From an uncultured Solirubrobacterales bacterium (GTDB lineage: Bacteria; Actinomycetota; Thermoleophilia; Solirubrobacterales; 70-9), in assembly GCA_903933815.1 (NCBI GenBank), contig CAIZLN010000084.1:1-50935 (forward strand): a stretch of DNA of 50,935 nucleotides. The letters are read 5' to 3'. Shown piece after piece: positions 16,044 to 20,269 of the stretch. The notes under the pieces are model-generated. The model worked only from the letters and a program-made list of their open reading frames with translations. It searched no databases and had not been told where the DNA came from. The position numbers and the translations under genes are program-made. How positions within the stretch are numbered: position 1 is the stretch's first letter; every line of letters begins with the position of its first letter.

Positions 16044-16622
16044 TCAGGATGATCGCTCGTCGAGAGCTTTCAGCCGGTAGGTCGTCGCCTTCAGAGAGCA
16101 GCCGAAAATTTCCTGAATGACTTCGACATCCCGACCGTGCCTCTCGAGGTGGGGATGAATCAGGTGCTCGGGCATGAGCAGCGCGGCGGCGAAAGCATCA
16201 GCCTCGGATTCGGTGGGTGACCGGGGCGCCGGCACAGGCACTTCGTCTTCAGCGTCAACAATGTCACCCGACCGACAGAATATTCGTGGTGCCTCATCCT
16301 GATGGAGCAGGTAATGACCCACTTCGTGGCCGATCGTGAAACGACGCCTGCCCGGCCATCGTTCGGCTTCTTCGGCATTGACCCATATTTCCCCGAGGTC
16401 AGTGAGCAACAGTCCCGAGAGATGCATCAGGGGCAGGTCCTCATAGCCCGGGGCGGAAGTCATGTCGTCGGCCAGCCGGACTCGCAGTCCGAGAACATTG
16501 TCGACTATCGAATCGACCGGAACCGGCAGAGACTCACCGTCCCATACGAACTCGGGGACTCGCTCAAGGAGGTCGTAGGCCTCCCGTTCCACCGCGTTGA
16601 CATCAATCCGGCCATCTTCCAT
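16044..16622 (-). CDS. ImmA/IrrE-family metallopeptidase
   Basis: The 192-residue protein contains RFTIGHEVGHYLLH (the HExxH zinc site) and ESEADAFAAALLMP (the downstream ligand region), the two hallmarks of ImmA/IrrE peptidases. Known members cut a partner HTH regulator (ImmR in ICEBs1, DdrO in Deinococcus). It is the last gene of a three-gene operon: 12 nt separate it from the HTH-like protein upstream, which is the natural candidate substrate. It has no strong ribosome site, so translation may depend on coupling. The C-terminal 40 residues form a short helical region. Confidence 0.9.
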   Translation of the reverse strand: MEDGRIDVNAVEREAYDLLERVPEFVWDGESLPVPVDSIVDNVLGLRVRLADDMTSAPGYEDLPLMHLSGLLLTDLGEIWVNAEEAERWPGRRRFTIGHEVGHYLLHQDEAPRIFCRSGDIVDAEDEVPVPAPRSPTESEADAFAAALLMPEHLIHPHLERHGRDVEVIQEIFGCSLKATTYRLKALDERSS

Positions 16623-16634
16623 GAGGCCGTGAGC

Positions 16635-17312
16635 TTAGCGTCCGGCTTCGGACCCCTCAATGTCAACAAACAGCCTGTCGATCCGGTCCGGCTTGCCCTT
16701 GATCCTGCTGAATACCCGGTGACTGTCGGCATCAATCGAATCCGCGGGTGTCAGTTCGAAAGAGACTGCCGAATCCGACGGGCTGCTCTGCCGGCGGGCG
16801 AAAACCGTCCCCCCTGCCCTCGGCGAAGGTGTAGCTTCACCAGCCCTGCGCAGGATCTCGACGGTTGTACCGTAAATGTCTGACAGGGCCTCGAGCACCC
16901 GGTCGGAAACCCCGCGCGGATCAAGGTTTCCCTGCTCCATGTCGTTGTAGTAATCGATCACCTTTTCGCTCTCGTCCGGGGTCTCGGCACCCAGCGATCT
17001 GGCCAGTTCGGACGAAACGGTCTCACGCTTCATCTGCTTCCGGAGCCTCATTGAGGGCAGCAGTTCCTTCCATCCCTGCTCCGGAATGAGGACCTTCGAA
17101 ACCAGTTGCTTGACCATTCCGAAAGCGGGTGAGTTCTGGTACGCGACGGGGTCCCACCGGTCCGGTTCGACCTCAAGCAGGAACTCCTCGATCTTCTGGT
17201 CCAGATCCTCGCGCTCGCCACCCTTGACCTGGTCAAGGAATGGCCAGGGGTCCACCTGTCCGGCTTTAAAAGCCGCAGCGTACTCGGCCAGCAGGTGGTC
17301 AACCCTGCTCAT
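16635..17312 (-). CDS. HTH (XRE-like) protein between sigma factor and ImmA peptidase; candidate regulator or anti-sigma
   Basis: The 225-residue protein has a central helical region (about residues 90-165) that resembles an XRE-type helix-turn-helix: TVSSELARSLGAE, YYNDMEQGNLDP, SDRVLEALSDIYG, TTVEILRRAG. The N-terminal 85 residues are acidic and helical, resembling regulators that bind sigma factors only in a general way. The C-terminal 60 residues look flexible. The start overlaps the sigma stop as TGATG, with GGAGG 6 nt upstream, so the two are translationally coupled. Reading it as the cognate substrate of the next gene's peptidase is inference. Confidence 0.72.
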   Translation of the reverse strand: MSRVDHLLAEYAAAFKAGQVDPWPFLDQVKGGEREDLDQKIEEFLLEVEPDRWDPVAYQNSPAFGMVKQLVSKVLIPEQGWKELLPSMRLRKQMKRETVSSELARSLGAETPDESEKVIDYYNDMEQGNLDPRGVSDRVLEALSDIYGTTVEILRRAGEATPSPRAGGTVFARRQSSPSDSAVSFELTPADSIDADSHRVFSRIKGKPDRIDRLFVDIEGSEAGR

Positions 17313-17992
17313 CAGGCCCCTCCTGCCTCGGGGAAGAGTTCGGGCCTCAACCTGTTCTTGAAGCGGGCGTAAATCTGGTCGACGTTGGCCGGTGTCATGC
17401 CCGCGTTGGCACCCTCTCCGGATCCATTCAAACTTTCAGCCACCTGTTTTGCGGGATGGCCATCAATGCGCATCCGGATCACCGTGCAGTCGCGCCTGGA
17501 ATGTGCCGCCAGGACCTCCTCGACCACCATCCAGGCCTCGGATTCATCAGTGAAGTCTCCGGTTGAAACAAGCCTTTCGATCAGATCCTCGCCGTCATCT
17601 GACTCAAACGCCGATTCGGGCTCACGCTCGGCCTTCTTGTAGTAATCAGCGATCCGGCGGTCCCGGATGACGAAGAAAAGCGAAAAGAACTCACCTGTGT
17701 ACTGGCCTCTGAAGGCAGCTCTCAGCATGTCGGCGATGACTTCCCCGAGTATGTCCTCAGCATCCTCGCGGCTCCTGACTCTCTTCTGGATGAGGCCAAG
17801 CTGCTTGCCATAGCGGGGGAAAATGAGAAAGCCGGTGCCCCTGACGACTTCCTCGTCAAAACCTGCGTCGCGTGCCTCGACCAGGTAAGCAACCAGATCA
17901 TCATCCGAGAGGTTTTCGAGTTCGTGATCATCTTTTGGCCTGAACTTCAAGCTTCCCCCGAAATGTCTCCGACTGGGCGGCCAATCTGACAC
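17312..17992 (-). CDS. Sigma-70 family RNA polymerase sigma factor (ECF-like)
   Basis: Region 2 is visible in SREDAEDILGEVIADML and FSLFFVIRDRRIADYYKK; region 4 in DCTVIRMRIDGHPAKQVAESL, a loop, then MTPANVDQIYARFKNRLRPEL. No sigma-1 or sigma-3 region was recognised, so it is ECF-like. The start is uncertain: GTG 17992 (GGGAG directly adjacent), TTG 17950 (GGGGGA 3 nt upstream), or ATG 18073, which would overlap the divergent oxidoreductase. It heads an operon with an HTH-like protein and an ImmA peptidase. The N-terminal part is visibly less G+C-rich than its neighbours (29 of 60 bases in 17881-17940 by hand count), a possible sign of transfer. Confidence 0.82.
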   Translation of the reverse strand: MSDWPPSRRHFGGSLKFRPKDDHELENLSDDDLVAYLVEARDAGFDEEVVRGTGFLIFPRYGKQLGLIQKRVRSREDAEDILGEVIADMLRAAFRGQYTGEFFSLFFVIRDRRIADYYKKAEREPESAFESDDGEDLIERLVSTGDFTDESEAWMVVEEVLAAHSRRDCTVIRMRIDGHPAKQVAESLNGSGEGANAGMTPANVDQIYARFKNRLRPELFPEAGGA

Positions 17993-18052
17993 CTCCCGAT
18001 TTTCAATGATGTCCAAGATACAGCCACCGTCGGCTAGAGTCGTGAAATCGCC

Positions 18053-19489
18053 ATGAGAGACGAAGGGCAACATGTCTGGCCGGTTGAGCCCCCGACCAGG
18101 GCCGACCGGGATTCCTACGCAGATGCCGTGCCGCGGCCCTTCTGGCTGGATCGTGACCGCCCGTCACCCTGCGACCCCCTGGAGGGCCGCGCAAAGGCTG
18201 ACCTCGTAATCGTCGGCGGAGGCCTGACCGGACTGTGGGCGGCGGTCCTGGCCAAGGAGATGCAGCCCGATCGGGCGGTCACTCTGATCGACCGGGAAAC
18301 ACTGGCGGTAGGTGCCAGCGGGCGAAACGGCGGCTTTATGTCTTCATCCCTGGTCCACGGTGTCGGCAACGGGCTGTCCCGGTTCCCGGATGAAATGCCC
18401 GAACTCGAAAGGCTGGGGCTTGAGAACCTCGAGGCGATCGGCGCAGCGATCGAGAGATACGGGATCGAATGTGACCTTGAAAAGCCCGGGGCGATAAGCA
18501 CGGCAATGAACCCCGGGCAGATGGAAGGGCTGATCGAAGCCGAAGCCGACCTGAAGCGATTCGGGCACGACGCAGAGCTGCTCGACCAGGACGGGATGCG
18601 GGCAGAGGTCGATTCTCCCCTCTTCACTGGAGGCCTCTGGCAAAAGAGTGGCGAGTGGGCGGTGGATCCGGTCAAACTCTGTGACGGGCTGGCAGAAGCG
18701 GCGACCGAACTCGGTGTGGTGATATTCGAAAACACCGAGATGAGCGGGCTCAGGGAAACCGCCACCGGGATTGATGTCCTGACCGCTGGCGGCGTGATCT
18801 CAACCAGAAGGGTCCTGCTGGCGACCGCAGCCTTCAGGAGTCCGATCCGGGCAATCAGATCAAGGGTCGTACCGGTCTTCGATTACGTGCTGGTCACCGA
18901 ACCGCTGACCGACAGCCAGAAGAGCTCGATCGGCTGGCACAACCGCCAGGGGCTGTCTGACTCCGCCAACCGGTTCCACTACTACCGCCAGACTGAGGAC
19001 GGGCGCATTTTGTGGGGCGGCTACGACGCGATCTACAACTACGGTGGCAAGGTGGAAGATCGCTACTACCAGCGCGAGCAGAGTTTTGCCGGACTGGCAC
19101 AGAGGTTCCACGCGCTCTTTCCCCAGCTGGAAGGAATCCGGTTCACCCACCGCTGGGGCGGCGCCATCGATACCTGTTCACGCTTTTTTGCCTTCTACGG
19201 ACTCGCCCACAGTGGCAAGGTTTCCTATGCGGTCGGCCACACCGGACTCGGGGTCGGTGCCAGCCGGTTCGCCGCCAGAGTCGGTCTGGAACTGCTTGAA
19301 GGCCGGGAAAGCGGGATCACGGGGCTTCAGTACGTCCGTGAGCGCCCGGTGCCGTTCCCTCCCGAGCCGTTGCGCTGGCCGACTATTCAGCTCACCCGCA
19401 ACCGGATAGCCGCAGCAGACCTGAATGGTGGCCGCGACGGGATGTGGCTGCGCACGCTCAGCCGACTTGGTCTCGGCTTCGACAGCTAG
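18053..19489 (+). CDS. FAD-dependent oxidoreductase (DAO/PuuB-like)
   Basis: The 478-residue protein has a dinucleotide motif VIVGGGLTGLWAAVLA near residue 47, then VGASGRNGGFMSS, the signature of the D-amino-acid oxidase/sarcosine oxidase/gamma-glutamylputrescine oxidase group. RWGGAIDTCSRFF and VGHTGLGVGASRFAA near the C-terminus are typical of the substrate and FAD domains of this group. It probably oxidises an amine or imino acid, but the substrate cannot be set. TAGAGT (18035-18040) ends 12 nt before the ATG, a plausible near-leaderless promoter. It overlaps the VapC-like gene by 4 bases at the 3' end. Confidence 0.88.
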   Translation: MRDEGQHVWPVEPPTRADRDSYADAVPRPFWLDRDRPSPCDPLEGRAKADLVIVGGGLTGLWAAVLAKEMQPDRAVTLIDRETLAVGASGRNGGFMSSSLVHGVGNGLSRFPDEMPELERLGLENLEAIGAAIERYGIECDLEKPGAISTAMNPGQMEGLIEAEADLKRFGHDAELLDQDGMRAEVDSPLFTGGLWQKSGEWAVDPVKLCDGLAEAATELGVVIFENTEMSGLRETATGIDVLTAGGVISTRRVLLATAAFRSPIRAIRSRVVPVFDYVLVTEPLTDSQKSSIGWHNRQGLSDSANRFHYYRQTEDGRILWGGYDAIYNYGGKVEDRYYQREQSFAGLAQRFHALFPQLEGIRFTHRWGGAIDTCSRFFAFYGLAHSGKVSYAVGHTGLGVGASRFAARVGLELLEGRESGITGLQYVRERPVPFPPEPLRWPTIQLTRNRIAAADLNGGRDGMWLRTLSRLGLGFDS

Positions 19490-19869
19490 GAGATCAGCTT
19501 GACGTCGACGCCGATGTCGAGTCCGGCCCAGGCCCGGTCGGCTGTGTAGATCGGACAGTTCCTGAGCATCGCCAGTGAGAGGCAGGCCCGGTCTGCCAGT
19601 GAAAGCCCGAGGCTTCTGGTAGTCGGACGCATGGCCGCCGCAAGCACTGCCTGGGGCTCGCTGAATGGAACCACTTCAATCATTGGCAGGACTGCCCTCG
19701 CCTCGTCACGGTCAACTCCGAACTCGGCGAGCGTCTCGAGGGTTTCGCTCCAGTTCAAAGCGGAAACAAGCGAGCGGGGAAGCAGCGGCTCGACCAGAGC
19801 CGCCCCGGACTCACCGCCGAGCCAGGCGATCAGCGCCGAGGCATCAAGAATCGCGTCTCTATCGCTCAA
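19486..19869 (-). CDS. VapC-like PIN-domain toxin (ribonuclease)
   Basis: The PIN acidic residues are visible: ILDASALIAWL (first Asp), the Glu in NWSETLETL, LADRACLSLA, and TADRAWA. At about 127 residues it is of normal VapC length. The start is set at TTG 19869, inside the end of the upstream antitoxin gene (11-nt overlap), since the frame before it does not resemble the family. VapC toxins cut RNA at specific sites when not bound by antitoxin. The stop codon shares the CTAG palindrome with the stop of the convergent oxidoreductase. Confidence 0.88.
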   Translation of the reverse strand: MSDRDAILDASALIAWLGGESGAALVEPLLPRSLVSALNWSETLETLAEFGVDRDEARAVLPMIEVVPFSEPQAVLAAAMRPTTRSLGLSLADRACLSLAMLRNCPIYTADRAWAGLDIGVDVKLIS

Positions 19870-20116
19870 GATGGGCCTGTCCCAGGCCGGACTCGGCACG
19901 CCTGCGCTCAATCAGCTCATCGGTGAGGCTTCGCGCCTTGGCCCCTTCAGACAGTTTCTTCCTGACCGTCGCAAGCGCCGCTGAAGGGCTCTCGAGAACC
20001 AGGCGACCATCTTCAACCCGAGCCCTGAGTTCGTCGCCTTCATCGAAGTCGAGCCTGCTCCGGATCTCGGAGGGGATGACAATCCTCCCCTGTTTTCCCA
20101 TCTTGACTAGTGCCAT
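19859..20116 (-). CDS. AbrB/SpoVT-fold antitoxin (VapB/MazE-like)
   Basis: The ATG at 20116 begins MALVKMGKQGRIVIPSEIR and continues RLDFDEGDELRARVEDGRLVL, the swapped-hairpin AbrB DNA-binding domain found in VapB and MazE antitoxins. The C-terminal 35 residues (SEGAKARSLTDELIERRRAE) are a charged helix that would wrap the toxin. It lies upstream of and overlaps the PIN toxin gene, the normal antitoxin-first order. Such pairs usually autorepress their own operon. Confidence 0.88.
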   Translation of the reverse strand: MALVKMGKQGRIVIPSEIRSRLDFDEGDELRARVEDGRLVLESPSAALATVRKKLSEGAKARSLTDELIERRRAESGLGQAHLER

Positions 20117-20269
20117 TGCGCCAGCATGATGGCACAGCCGTCCGGATGCTGCCACTGGTTCTATGGAAATGACACGCGACGACCACGTCCACCACGACGA
20201 CCTGAACGGGCTCCCCGTCGTCCGCTCGCCGGCTGCCAGGTACGGCTCCGGTGTCGGCGCTGCTGCGGC

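What the first reader, a model, noticed from the sequence alone, without database searches (positions are those of the whole stretch)
16044..17992. Sigma factor / HTH protein / ImmA peptidase operon: a possible proteolysis-controlled sigma switch
Three leftward genes are tightly linked: an ECF-like sigma factor, an XRE-like HTH protein starting at the sigma stop (TGATG overlap with GGAGG upstream), and an ImmA/IrrE-type metallopeptidase 12 nt later. In known ImmA/IrrE systems the peptidase cuts a partner HTH regulator. Here a sigma factor is added as the first gene. This suggests the HTH protein holds the sigma factor inactive, or represses the operon, until the peptidase cuts it. I know of no described system with exactly this make-up.
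Basis: partly seen in the sequence, partly recalled or inferred. Interest (0 to 1): 0.75.

Follow-up and report, generated by a model that had tools for sequence, protein, structure and literature searches.

The report
Protease-linked sigma factor for DNA repair
Three neighbouring genes in a group of soil and water bacteria appear to form a switch in which a protein-cutting enzyme releases a gene-activating factor that turns on DNA-repair genes, a way of wiring a DNA-damage response that I did not find described.

Summary
In detail: an ECF sigma factor, an XRE-fold HTH protein and a COG2856 (ImmA/IrrE/CapP-type) zinc peptidase form a minus-strand operon. One correction: sigma most likely starts at TTG 17950; GTG 17992 lies inside a promoter. 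The HTH protein has matches in 81 of 299 genomes of the class, mostly with both partners where inspected.

Upstream of sigma stands GTCAG-N16/17-CGAC, an ECF-type promoter (25 of 36 loci). In trio-bearing genomes the same element precedes addAB (15 of 17), DUF2130 (7 of 7 copies), sbcD (4 of 4) and ssb (7 of 20), not recA (0 of 30). LexA coexists. By sequence the peptidase's best solved relative is CapP, an ssDNA-activated protease; the cysteine aligned with CapP's is invariant (34 of 34). The HTH model resembles DdrO and CapH domains and has a conserved F-A-R in its disordered linker.

Best reading: an SOS-independent DNA-damage response in which damage activates the peptidase, it cuts the HTH protein, and freed sigma drives its operon and repair genes. 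The sigma-regulon link rests on promoter association; anti-sigma role, cleavage and trigger are inferred. My searches found no description in print.

The parts
17312..17950 (-). ECF (group IV) sigma factor, 212 aa, TTG start (inferred from conservation)
   Evidence: Family profile A3 vs PDB: RpoE 1or7 E=6e-13, SigL 6dv9 1.8e-11; Pfam Sigma70_r2 in 27 of 34 members at E<=0.1; TTG start
16635..17312 (-). XRE-fold HTH regulator (proposed anti-sigma and protease substrate), 225 aa
   Evidence: AF2 model mean pLDDT 84.7; Foldseek XRE hits incl. DdrO and CapH DNA-binding domains, none E<=0.001; family alignment A5
17088..17312 (-). N-terminal helical domain of the HTH protein (residues 1-75), candidate sigma-binding part (inference)
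   Evidence: Helices H3-16, H23-26, H32-47, H55-59, H62-75; conserved in A1/A5
16833..17072 (-). XRE-type HTH domain (residues 81-160)
   Evidence: Helices H81-91, H96-106, H112-126, H137-147, H151-159; YYHxMExGxL conserved
16794..16802 (-). Conserved F-A-R (residues 171-173) in the disordered linker, candidate cleavage site (inference)
   Evidence: F 27/37, A 32/37, R 36/37 in an otherwise variable stretch; pLDDT about 50
16668..16688 (-). Conserved C-terminal motif D-R/E-I-D-x-L-F (residues 209-215), role unknown
   Evidence: D209 33/37, D212 36/37, L214 35/37, F215 37/37
16044..16622 (-). COG2856/M78 zinc peptidase, CapP-like, 192 aa
   Evidence: Pfam M78 E=1.2e-16; PADLOC capP E=2.5e-25, 34 of 34 members hit capP; PDB profile hit CapP 7t5t E=7.7e-14 vs IrrE 3dte 4.2e-5
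16314..16328 (-). HEVGH zinc-binding/catalytic motif (residues 99-103)
   Evidence: H99, E100, H103 in 34 of 34
16275..16277 (-). Invariant Cys116, proposed cysteine-switch residue
   Evidence: 34 of 34; aligned with the CapP 7t5t Cys in the profile and phmmer alignments
17965..17991 (-). ECF-type promoter P2: TGTCAGA-N17-GAC, proposed autoregulatory
   Evidence: GTCAG with CGAC (or GAGAC/GGGAC) at 16-17 nt upstream of sigma in 25 of 36 loci; TGTCAG within 110 nt upstream in 22 of 36 vs 1 of 36 at -250..-120
18015..18043 (-). Sigma-A-like promoter P1 (ACGACT-N17-TATCTT), recurrent in same-genus loci, by eye
   Evidence: GACTnTAGCCGAC...TATCTTGG block in upstream sequences; no statistical test

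Best explanation
The trio is a cytoplasmic, SOS-independent DNA-damage switch built on a sigma factor. In the resting cell the HTH protein, encoded directly after sigma, keeps sigma inactive (anti-sigma role). DNA damage, probably sensed as single-stranded DNA, opens the cysteine switch of the CapP-like zinc peptidase. The peptidase cuts the HTH protein, most likely at the conserved F-A-R in the linker between its HTH domain and its C-terminal motif. Freed sigma directs RNA polymerase to TGTCAGA-N15/16-CGAC promoters, raising its own operon (positive feedback plus fresh inhibitor for shut-off) and double-strand-break and ssDNA-handling genes: addAB, sbcD, ssb, DUF2130, rmuC. With direct sequence support: conserved operon, ECF identity, ECF-type promoter at the operon, the same promoter at repair genes. 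Inferred: that this sigma reads that promoter (about 0.85), HTH is the protease substrate (0.75), HTH is an anti-sigma rather than only an operon repressor (0.6), ssDNA/DNA damage is the trigger (0.6).
For: Trio conserved in order and strand. ECF-type promoter upstream of sigma in 25 of 36 loci, same geometry at targets (GTCAG-N17/18-GAC in 24 operon and 25 target sites that I had chosen). Repair genes with the element within 120 nt of the start, in trio+ genomes: addB 15 of 17 (shuffle mean 0.13, reverse strand 0), DUF2130 7 of 7 copies in 6 genomes (0.05; 0), sbcD 4 of 4 (0.01; 0), ssb 7 of 20 (0.09 for 19; reverse strand 2 of 19), recA 0 of 16 (0.13 for 15; 0); recA 0 of all 30 fetched. ssb in trio- genomes 0 of 10. 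addB motif at -30..-80 in 21 of 27 trio+ vs 5 of 19 trio- genomes, Fisher p=8e-4, not corrected for kinship. Own genome: 11 TGTCAGAN{16,17}GAC sites vs 2 in the backwards control; ssb, addB and DUF2130 follow three of them. Target identity: ADDB_N+PDDEXK then UvrD+PDDEXK; SbcD_C, SSB, DUF2130, RmuC. Peptidase nearest to CapP by sequence, with CapP's aligned cysteine invariant. CapP and PprI are ssDNA-activated proteases that cut HTH repressors, and VapB52 is an IrrE-type protein whose ssDNA-triggered self-cut is proposed to free a bound protein, the VapC52 toxin (passages: PMC10904395, PMC13373217, PMC13273310). HTH model resembles DdrO and CapH DNA-binding domains.
Against: No expression, binding or cleavage data; sigma-promoter pairing is by association only. 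5 of 19 trio- genomes keep the addB element (G013, G036, G040, G043, G056; a lost, missed or diverged trio was not tested) and 6 of 27 trio+ genomes lack it. sbcD has it in 2 of 5 trio- genomes too. ssb has it in a minority, and 2 of 19 on the wrong strand. The strict pattern also exceeds its backwards control in the f4 genomes, where the HTH protein was not found (12 sites vs 1); the five of these inspected lie in genes or at least 200 nt from the next start, so that control is too mild. In f5, f7, f10, f11 and f13 no GTCAG-GAC element stands upstream of sigma except one at -1 (11 loci, one without upstream sequence). AlphaFold2 of a HTH-peptidase pseudo-fusion left the F-A-R linker disordered (pLDDT about 41). 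No anti-sigma family matches the HTH protein. Distance correlations link HTH with peptidase and sigma with HTH, but a neighbour gene (DAO) correlates almost as well with HTH and peptidase. By fold, IrrE scores as high as CapP.
Confidence: 0.55

Rival explanations
1. The HTH protein is a DNA-binding repressor of the sigma operon, as DdrO and CapH are for their targets, not an anti-sigma. The peptidase cuts it, the housekeeping-type promoter P1 is freed, sigma accumulates and drives P2 and the repair genes. Only the point of control differs.
For: DdrO and CapH, the best-known partners of such proteases, are DNA-binding repressors (passages). The HTH fold is kept, with a conserved recognition-helix region YYHxMExGxL. 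A sigma-A-like P1 block recurs upstream in the genus.
Against: No operator common to the operon promoters was seen by eye (no motif search was run for one). Positive feedback through P2 without an anti-sigma would have no evident off-switch. The HTH gene follows sigma directly in most loci, often overlapping it, the usual sigma/anti-sigma layout. VapB52 is proposed to release a bound protein, not DNA.
Confidence: 0.27
2. The GTCAG element is a PafBC-type (RecA-NDp) promoter and the repair genes answer to PafBC; the trio is only one more PafBC target.
For: The core TGTCAG resembles the PafBC motif (recalled as tTGTCRGtg-N8-TAnnnT; no call gave its letters). PafBC uses a -26 motif and controls mycobacterial repair genes (passages).
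Against: A TAnnnT 9-11 nt after GTCAG is found in 0 of 49 chosen sites, while GAC at 17-18 nt is the rule, the spacing of ECF promoters (B. subtilis SigX TGTAAC-N17-CGAC, recalled). recA, a PafBC target in mycobacteria (passage), lacks the element (0 of 30). The addB element partly tracks trio presence. PafBC presence in these genomes was not tested.
Confidence: 0.08
3. The trio controls a different stress (oxidative, desiccation or phage attack) and the repair genes are only part of a general regulon.
For: Other genes behind the element include a VWA protein, MW(I/L)(I/V)TDRGFYS small proteins and, by eye, clpC and lipoproteins. CapP controls immune operons elsewhere (passage). IrrE can answer redox/zinc signals (start of abstract of PMC7907104 in the listing). 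The trio diverges fast at a fixed place.
Against: The best-supported targets are DNA-end processing and ssDNA proteins. No defence genes were recognised by eye beside the trio (no defence scan of the neighbours was run).
Confidence: 0.1

Closest known systems
CapH/CapP (controller of CBASS and other immune operons)
   Same: COG2856 peptidase beside an XRE-fold partner; CapP is the best solved relative of the peptidase by sequence (E=7.7e-14) with an aligned cysteine; CapP is ssDNA-activated and cuts CapH (passages)
   Different: A sigma factor is added as first gene; no immune operon recognised beside it; dispersed DNA-repair regulon; the peptidase is short (192 aa), too short for the GAF domain that CapP has; HTH protein has an extra N-terminal helical domain
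IrrE(PprI)/DdrO radiation-desiccation response of Deinococcus
   Same: COG2856 peptidase, XRE-fold partner and an SOS-independent DNA-repair regulon; Foldseek match of the model to 3dti E=7e-4, equal to CapP 7t5t
   Different: There DdrO represses targets directly through RDRM sites; here targets share an ECF-type promoter and a sigma factor is in the operon; IrrE has no cysteine at the CapP position in the alignment; Deinococcus targets include recA (abstract), not so here
VapBC52 of Mycobacterium tuberculosis
   Same: IrrE-type domain with cysteine switch, ssDNA-triggered cut at a conserved FR motif, proposed release of a bound protein partner (passages)
   Different: Self-cleaving single protein and a toxin as partner; here protease and HTH protein are separate genes and the proposed partner is a sigma factor
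ImmR/ImmA of ICEBs1 and relatives (recalled)
   Same: XRE protein plus COG2856 protease, proteolytic release
   Different: ImmR/ImmA belong to mobile elements; here the trio is chromosomal, at a fixed place in the 13 same-genus loci examined, with no homologue of the HTH protein found in plasmids, phages or viral contigs
ECF sigma/anti-sigma pairs released by proteolysis (RpoE-RseA-RseP)
   Same: Autoregulated sigma operon, inhibitor as next gene, destruction of inhibitor by a metalloprotease
   Different: There the anti-sigma is membrane-bound and cut by membrane proteases (passage); here all three lack an evident membrane part and the protease is of the IrrE/CapP family. Term searches of two ECF reviews gave no hit for XRE or helix-turn-helix (IrrE was not among the terms)
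PafBC and LexA DNA-damage responses
   Same: Control DNA-repair genes; TGTCAG resembles the PafBC motif (recalled)
   Different: Different proteins and promoter geometry; LexA matches in 59 of 61 genomes, 57 over its cutoff, with SOS-like boxes at 15 of 30 recA genes

Membership tests
ECF (group IV) sigma factor | Sigma regions 2 and 4, homologous to solved ECF sigmas | tested here: met
   A3 profile: RpoE, SigL, SigH, SigW structures E 6e-13 to 6e-6; Pfam r2 in 27 of 34, r4 models in 13 and 10 of 34 members at E<=0.1
ECF (group IV) sigma factor | ECF-type promoter (16-17 nt spacing) upstream of its own operon | tested here: met
   25 of 36 loci, two of these counted by eye; use by this sigma not tested
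Anti-sigma factor | Sequence match to a known anti-sigma family | tested here: not met
   No anti-sigma family among Pfam/NCBIfam hits for 37 members
Anti-sigma factor | Binds and inhibits the cognate sigma | not testable with these tools
   Only gene order and overlap support it
COG2856/M78 (ImmA/IrrE/CapP) peptidase | HEXXH plus downstream glutamate, M78 fold | tested here: met
   H99/E100/H103 34 of 34, E138 33 of 34; M78 E=1.2e-16; Foldseek IrrE/CapP
CapH/CapP controller | CapP with cysteine switch | tested here: inconclusive
   Cys invariant and aligned with CapP; switch function not tested
CapH/CapP controller | Sits upstream of and controls an adjacent immune operon | tested here: not met
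   Window neighbours are recD2, DAO, PadR, PIN/MazE, FtsX, CMAS by Pfam; neighbours in relatives judged by eye
IrrE/DdrO radiation-desiccation response | Direct repression of repair genes by the HTH protein via RDRM | tested here: inconclusive
   Repair genes share an ECF-type promoter; RDRM was not searched for
ImmR/ImmA mobile-element switch | Carried by an ICE, plasmid or phage | tested here: not met
   Fixed chromosomal place in 13 same-genus loci; no HTH-protein hit in plasmids, phages, viral contigs
PafBC-dependent promoter | TGTCRG followed by TAnnnT about 10 nt downstream (recalled) | tested here: not met
   0 of 49 chosen sites

The most novel reading that the evidence does not exclude
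A new wiring of the bacterial DNA-damage response found across much of the class Thermoleophilia: an ssDNA-activated, cysteine-switched CapP-like protease destroys a soluble XRE-fold anti-sigma factor, releasing an ECF sigma that switches on AddAB, SbcD, SSB, DUF2130 and RmuC in parallel with, and separate from, LexA control of recA. Within my searches it would be the first COG2856 protease acting on a sigma factor's inhibitor, and the first ECF sigma factor set to DNA damage by this route.
Probability: 0.42. Interest if true: 0.9.

Novelty: new variant of a known kind. Interest (0 to 1): 0.77.

Why it matters
The best-known COG2856 protease systems cut a DNA-binding repressor. Here the same protease family appears to be wired to a sigma factor, so one cut could turn on a dispersed repair regulon by redirecting RNA polymerase. 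That would join two regulatory worlds (IrrE/CapP-type proteolysis and ECF sigma factors), give a class of widespread, poorly studied actinobacteria a second DNA-damage response beside SOS, and suggest stress roles for uncharacterised proteins (DUF2130, MWxxTDRGF, the VWA protein). The regulon and promoter make it directly testable in cultured Solirubrobacter or Conexibacter.

Tried and rejected
Sigma start at GTG 17992: rejected, it lies in the -35-like element. Mobile-element reading: rejected. Toxin-antitoxin reading of M78+HTH: not pursued, since the regulon evidence points elsewhere. LexA replacement: rejected, LexA matches in 59 of 61 genomes. recA as a target: rejected, 0 of 30. AlphaFold2 pseudo-fusion of HTH protein and peptidase: pTM 0.74, but the linker stayed disordered and no coordinates are available, so it says nothing for cleavage. 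Mirror-tree correlations: inconclusive, the control gene correlates too. sbcD and DUF2130 homologues were found in few genomes (9 and 6 of 61), so the regulon varies. Literature: the ten searches listed no paper that describes the trio, judged from titles, abstract starts and the passages opened. The phrase ImmA/IrrE cannot be searched with its slash, and 'ImmA IrrE' had no occurrence in the listed papers; the main ECF re-classification paper is not held, so 'not found in print' is limited to these searches.

Counting notes: trio+ was defined (P0002 match, E<=0.001), and the -30..-80 window for addB was set. Of 49 addB upstream regions (28, 20, G000), 3 with only a weak A5 match (G027 and G060 without, G046 with the motif) were set aside. 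G011 and G013 are 74% and 73% complete. The shuffles shuffle blocks of two letters. One search took 17 of the 27 trio+ addB regions (the others came), 19 ssb and 15 recA regions; it left out G030 (ssb) and G012 (recA), both without the motif, hence 7 of 20 and 0 of 16. ssb and recA of the genomes without a delivered locus were not examined. The 24 operon and 25 target sites were chosen by me from those already showing GTCAG. One search skipped the five f4 loci L108-L112; one search looked at them. Some of the 81 matches are short and weak (e.g. G113, G200). The 20 distant loci were my choice from the 81.
Full report
What is there. Three minus-strand genes form an operon: a sigma factor (17312-17950), an HTH protein (16635-17312) whose ATG overlaps the sigma stop, and a zinc peptidase (16044-16622) 12 nt further. 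The sigma factor is weakly recognised alone, but its family profile matches solved ECF sigma factors, best RpoE 1or7 at E=6e-13. The HTH protein matches no curated family convincingly alone. Its AlphaFold2 model (28 sequences, mean pLDDT 84.7) shows an N-terminal helical domain, an XRE-type HTH domain, a disordered linker and a short C-terminal helix. Foldseek hits are mostly XRE HTH proteins, among them the DNA-binding domains of DdrO and CapH, the partners of IrrE and CapP, though none is significant by E-value. The peptidase is M78, and PADLOC capP is its best hit there (E=2.5e-25; 34 of 34 family members hit it).

Start correction. The start used by relatives corresponds to TTG 17950.

Conservation. 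The host is a Solirubrobacterales-like member of Thermoleophilia, judged from the titles of the 16 named loci with a relative of the HTH protein and the taxonomy. The HTH protein has a match in 32 of 61 relative genomes, 81 of 299 genomes drawn from the class (a few matches are short) and 18 of 396 drawn from the phylum, 15 of them in the class. Sigma is beside it in 29 of 30 loci and the peptidase follows in 28 of 30 (misses: L010 and L016 at contig ends, L032 lacks it). In 20 more distant loci that I chose from the 81, sigma precedes the HTH gene in 17, a same-strand peptidase follows within 0.8 kb in 13, and all three stand in order in 11. In the 13 same-genus loci with enough flank the trio lies beside the DAO-type oxidoreductase gene, and beside or near recD2 in 12. 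Yet its proteins have diverged to median identities of 34-44% while five neighbours stay at 67-74%. No plasmid, phage or viral-contig relative of the HTH protein was found.

Promoter. Upstream of sigma, GTCAG followed by CGAC (or GAGAC/GGGAC) at 16-17 nt stands in 25 of 36 loci. Two of these, L018 and L019, are counted by eye because the script reported an overlapping earlier CGAC. Nine loci have no GTCAG in that stretch and two have it without the second element at that spacing. TGTCAG occurs within 110 nt upstream in 22 of 36 loci against 1 of 36 further up. This is the geometry of an ECF promoter, and autoregulation is the usual habit of ECF sigma factors (established knowledge). In the farther families f5, f7, f10, f11 and f13 the element was not seen, apart from one match at -1.

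Regulon. The own genome has 11 TGTCAGAN{16,17}GAC sites against 2 in the backwards control. Besides the operon itself they include the upstream regions of ssb, an addB-like gene and a DUF2130 gene; several of the rest lie inside genes and look like chance. In 18 genomes of the genus the stricter pattern has 40 sites, operons included, against 10 control matches; in the five f4 genomes, where one search found no HTH protein, it has 12 against 1. That second figure warns that the backwards control is mild; the five f4 sites inspected are inside genes or at least 200 nt from the next start. Genes directly behind the sites recur in the genus: addB, sbcD, ssb, DUF2130, sigma itself, a VWA protein, an MW(I/L)(I/V)TDRGFYS protein, and once rmuC (families). 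I then tested orthologues. Within 120 nt upstream, in trio+ genomes: addB 15 of 17 (0.13 expected from shuffles), DUF2130 7 of 7 copies (0.05), sbcD 4 of 4 (0.01), ssb 7 of 20 (0.09 for 19; 2 of 19 on the reverse strand), recA 0 of 16. In trio- genomes: ssb 0 of 10, sbcD 2 of 5. The addB gene is an AddB (ADDB_N, PDDEXK) followed by an AddA-like gene (UvrD, PDDEXK) (from genome G004). Over all 49 examined genomes the addB element at -30..-80 is in 21 of 27 trio+, 5 of 19 trio- and 1 of 3 set-aside genomes (Fisher p=8e-4, which ignores kinship). The trio- exceptions count against a strict one-to-one link. recA has GAACnnnnGTTC boxes in 15 of 30 loci and no GTCAG element, and LexA matches in 59 of 61 genomes, so SOS probably runs in parallel.

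How it probably works. CapP and PprI are activated by ssDNA and cut their HTH partners (passages of PMC10904395; PMC13373217). In VapB52 a cysteine of a switch loop occupies the zinc site, as reported for CapP; a conserved FR motif is its probable cut site, and the cut is proposed to free the bound toxin (passages of PMC13273310). That last case is a precedent for releasing a protein partner rather than an operator. The peptidase here aligns best with CapP by sequence, and its Cys116 falls on CapP's cysteine in both alignments and is invariant in 34 of 34. IrrE has no cysteine there in the alignment. The HTH protein carries a conserved F-A-R (R in 36 of 37) in an otherwise variable, disordered linker. 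So the likeliest chain is: damage, ssDNA, peptidase opening, cut of the HTH protein, release of sigma, transcription of the operon and the repair genes. Whether the HTH protein holds sigma itself or only represses the operon cannot be decided here. Gene order, overlap and the need for an off-switch favour anti-sigma; DdrO and CapH being DNA-binding repressors favours the rival. An AlphaFold2 pseudo-fusion did not dock the linker, and evolutionary correlations were not specific.

Comparison and novelty. It works like IrrE/DdrO (SOS-independent repair control by a COG2856 protease) and carries a CapP-like protease, but fits neither definition: no adjacent immune operon was recognised, and the repair genes share a sigma-type promoter. 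Term searches of two ECF reviews (PMC8103513, PMC8999054) gave no XRE or helix-turn-helix hit; IrrE was not among those terms. Papers other than those whose passages are cited were seen as search listings only; none was read whole. I rate it a new variant of a known kind, with a fair chance of being a new type of DNA-damage response.

On recounting I changed the ssb figure from 7 of 19 to 7 of 20, recA in trio+ genomes from 0 of 15 to 0 of 16, added the sbcD and ssb counts of trio- genomes, the reverse-strand control and the f4 sites, and withdrew the statement that all known partners are DNA-binding repressors.

Noticed in passing
window 19486-20155 (-): PIN-domain protein preceded by a MazE/AbrB-type antitoxin gene: a VapBC-like toxin-antitoxin pair beside the DAO gene.
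   Followed up: no
window 16668-16688 (-) and relatives: The HTH protein ends in a conserved motif D(E/R)(I/V)DxLFxGG (F in 37 of 37), of unknown role; possibly the sigma- or protease-binding part.
   Followed up: partly
L089, L094, L121: MW(I/L)(I/V)TDRGFYS small proteins, no Pfam match for the one scanned, sit behind the same promoter in two genomes, and a related longer protein in a third: candidate new stress protein.
   Followed up: partly
L127, L141: A VWA-domain protein of 422 aa has the promoter exactly 36 nt upstream in two genera.
   Followed up: partly
window 16044-17950 and same-genus loci: The trio has diverged far more than its syntenic neighbours at a fixed chromosomal place (median identity 34-44% vs 67-74%); the cause is unexplained.
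   Followed up: partly
window 18015-18043 (-): Recurrent block GACTnTAGCCGAC...TATCTTGG between the divergent sigma operon and DAO gene in the genus, a sigma-A-like promoter and possible operator.
   Followed up: no
L115/L301 (genome G052): A second sigma-HTH copy in one genome has the same TGTCAGA-N-CGAC promoter.
   Followed up: no
L269, L270, L272, L282, L283, L284: In some f2, f4 and f10 genomes sigma and HTH genes are kept but no peptidase was found following on the same strand.
   Followed up: no
L303-L332: 15 of 30 recA genes of this order have a GAACnnnnGTTC SOS-like box 105-206 nt upstream.
   Followed up: no
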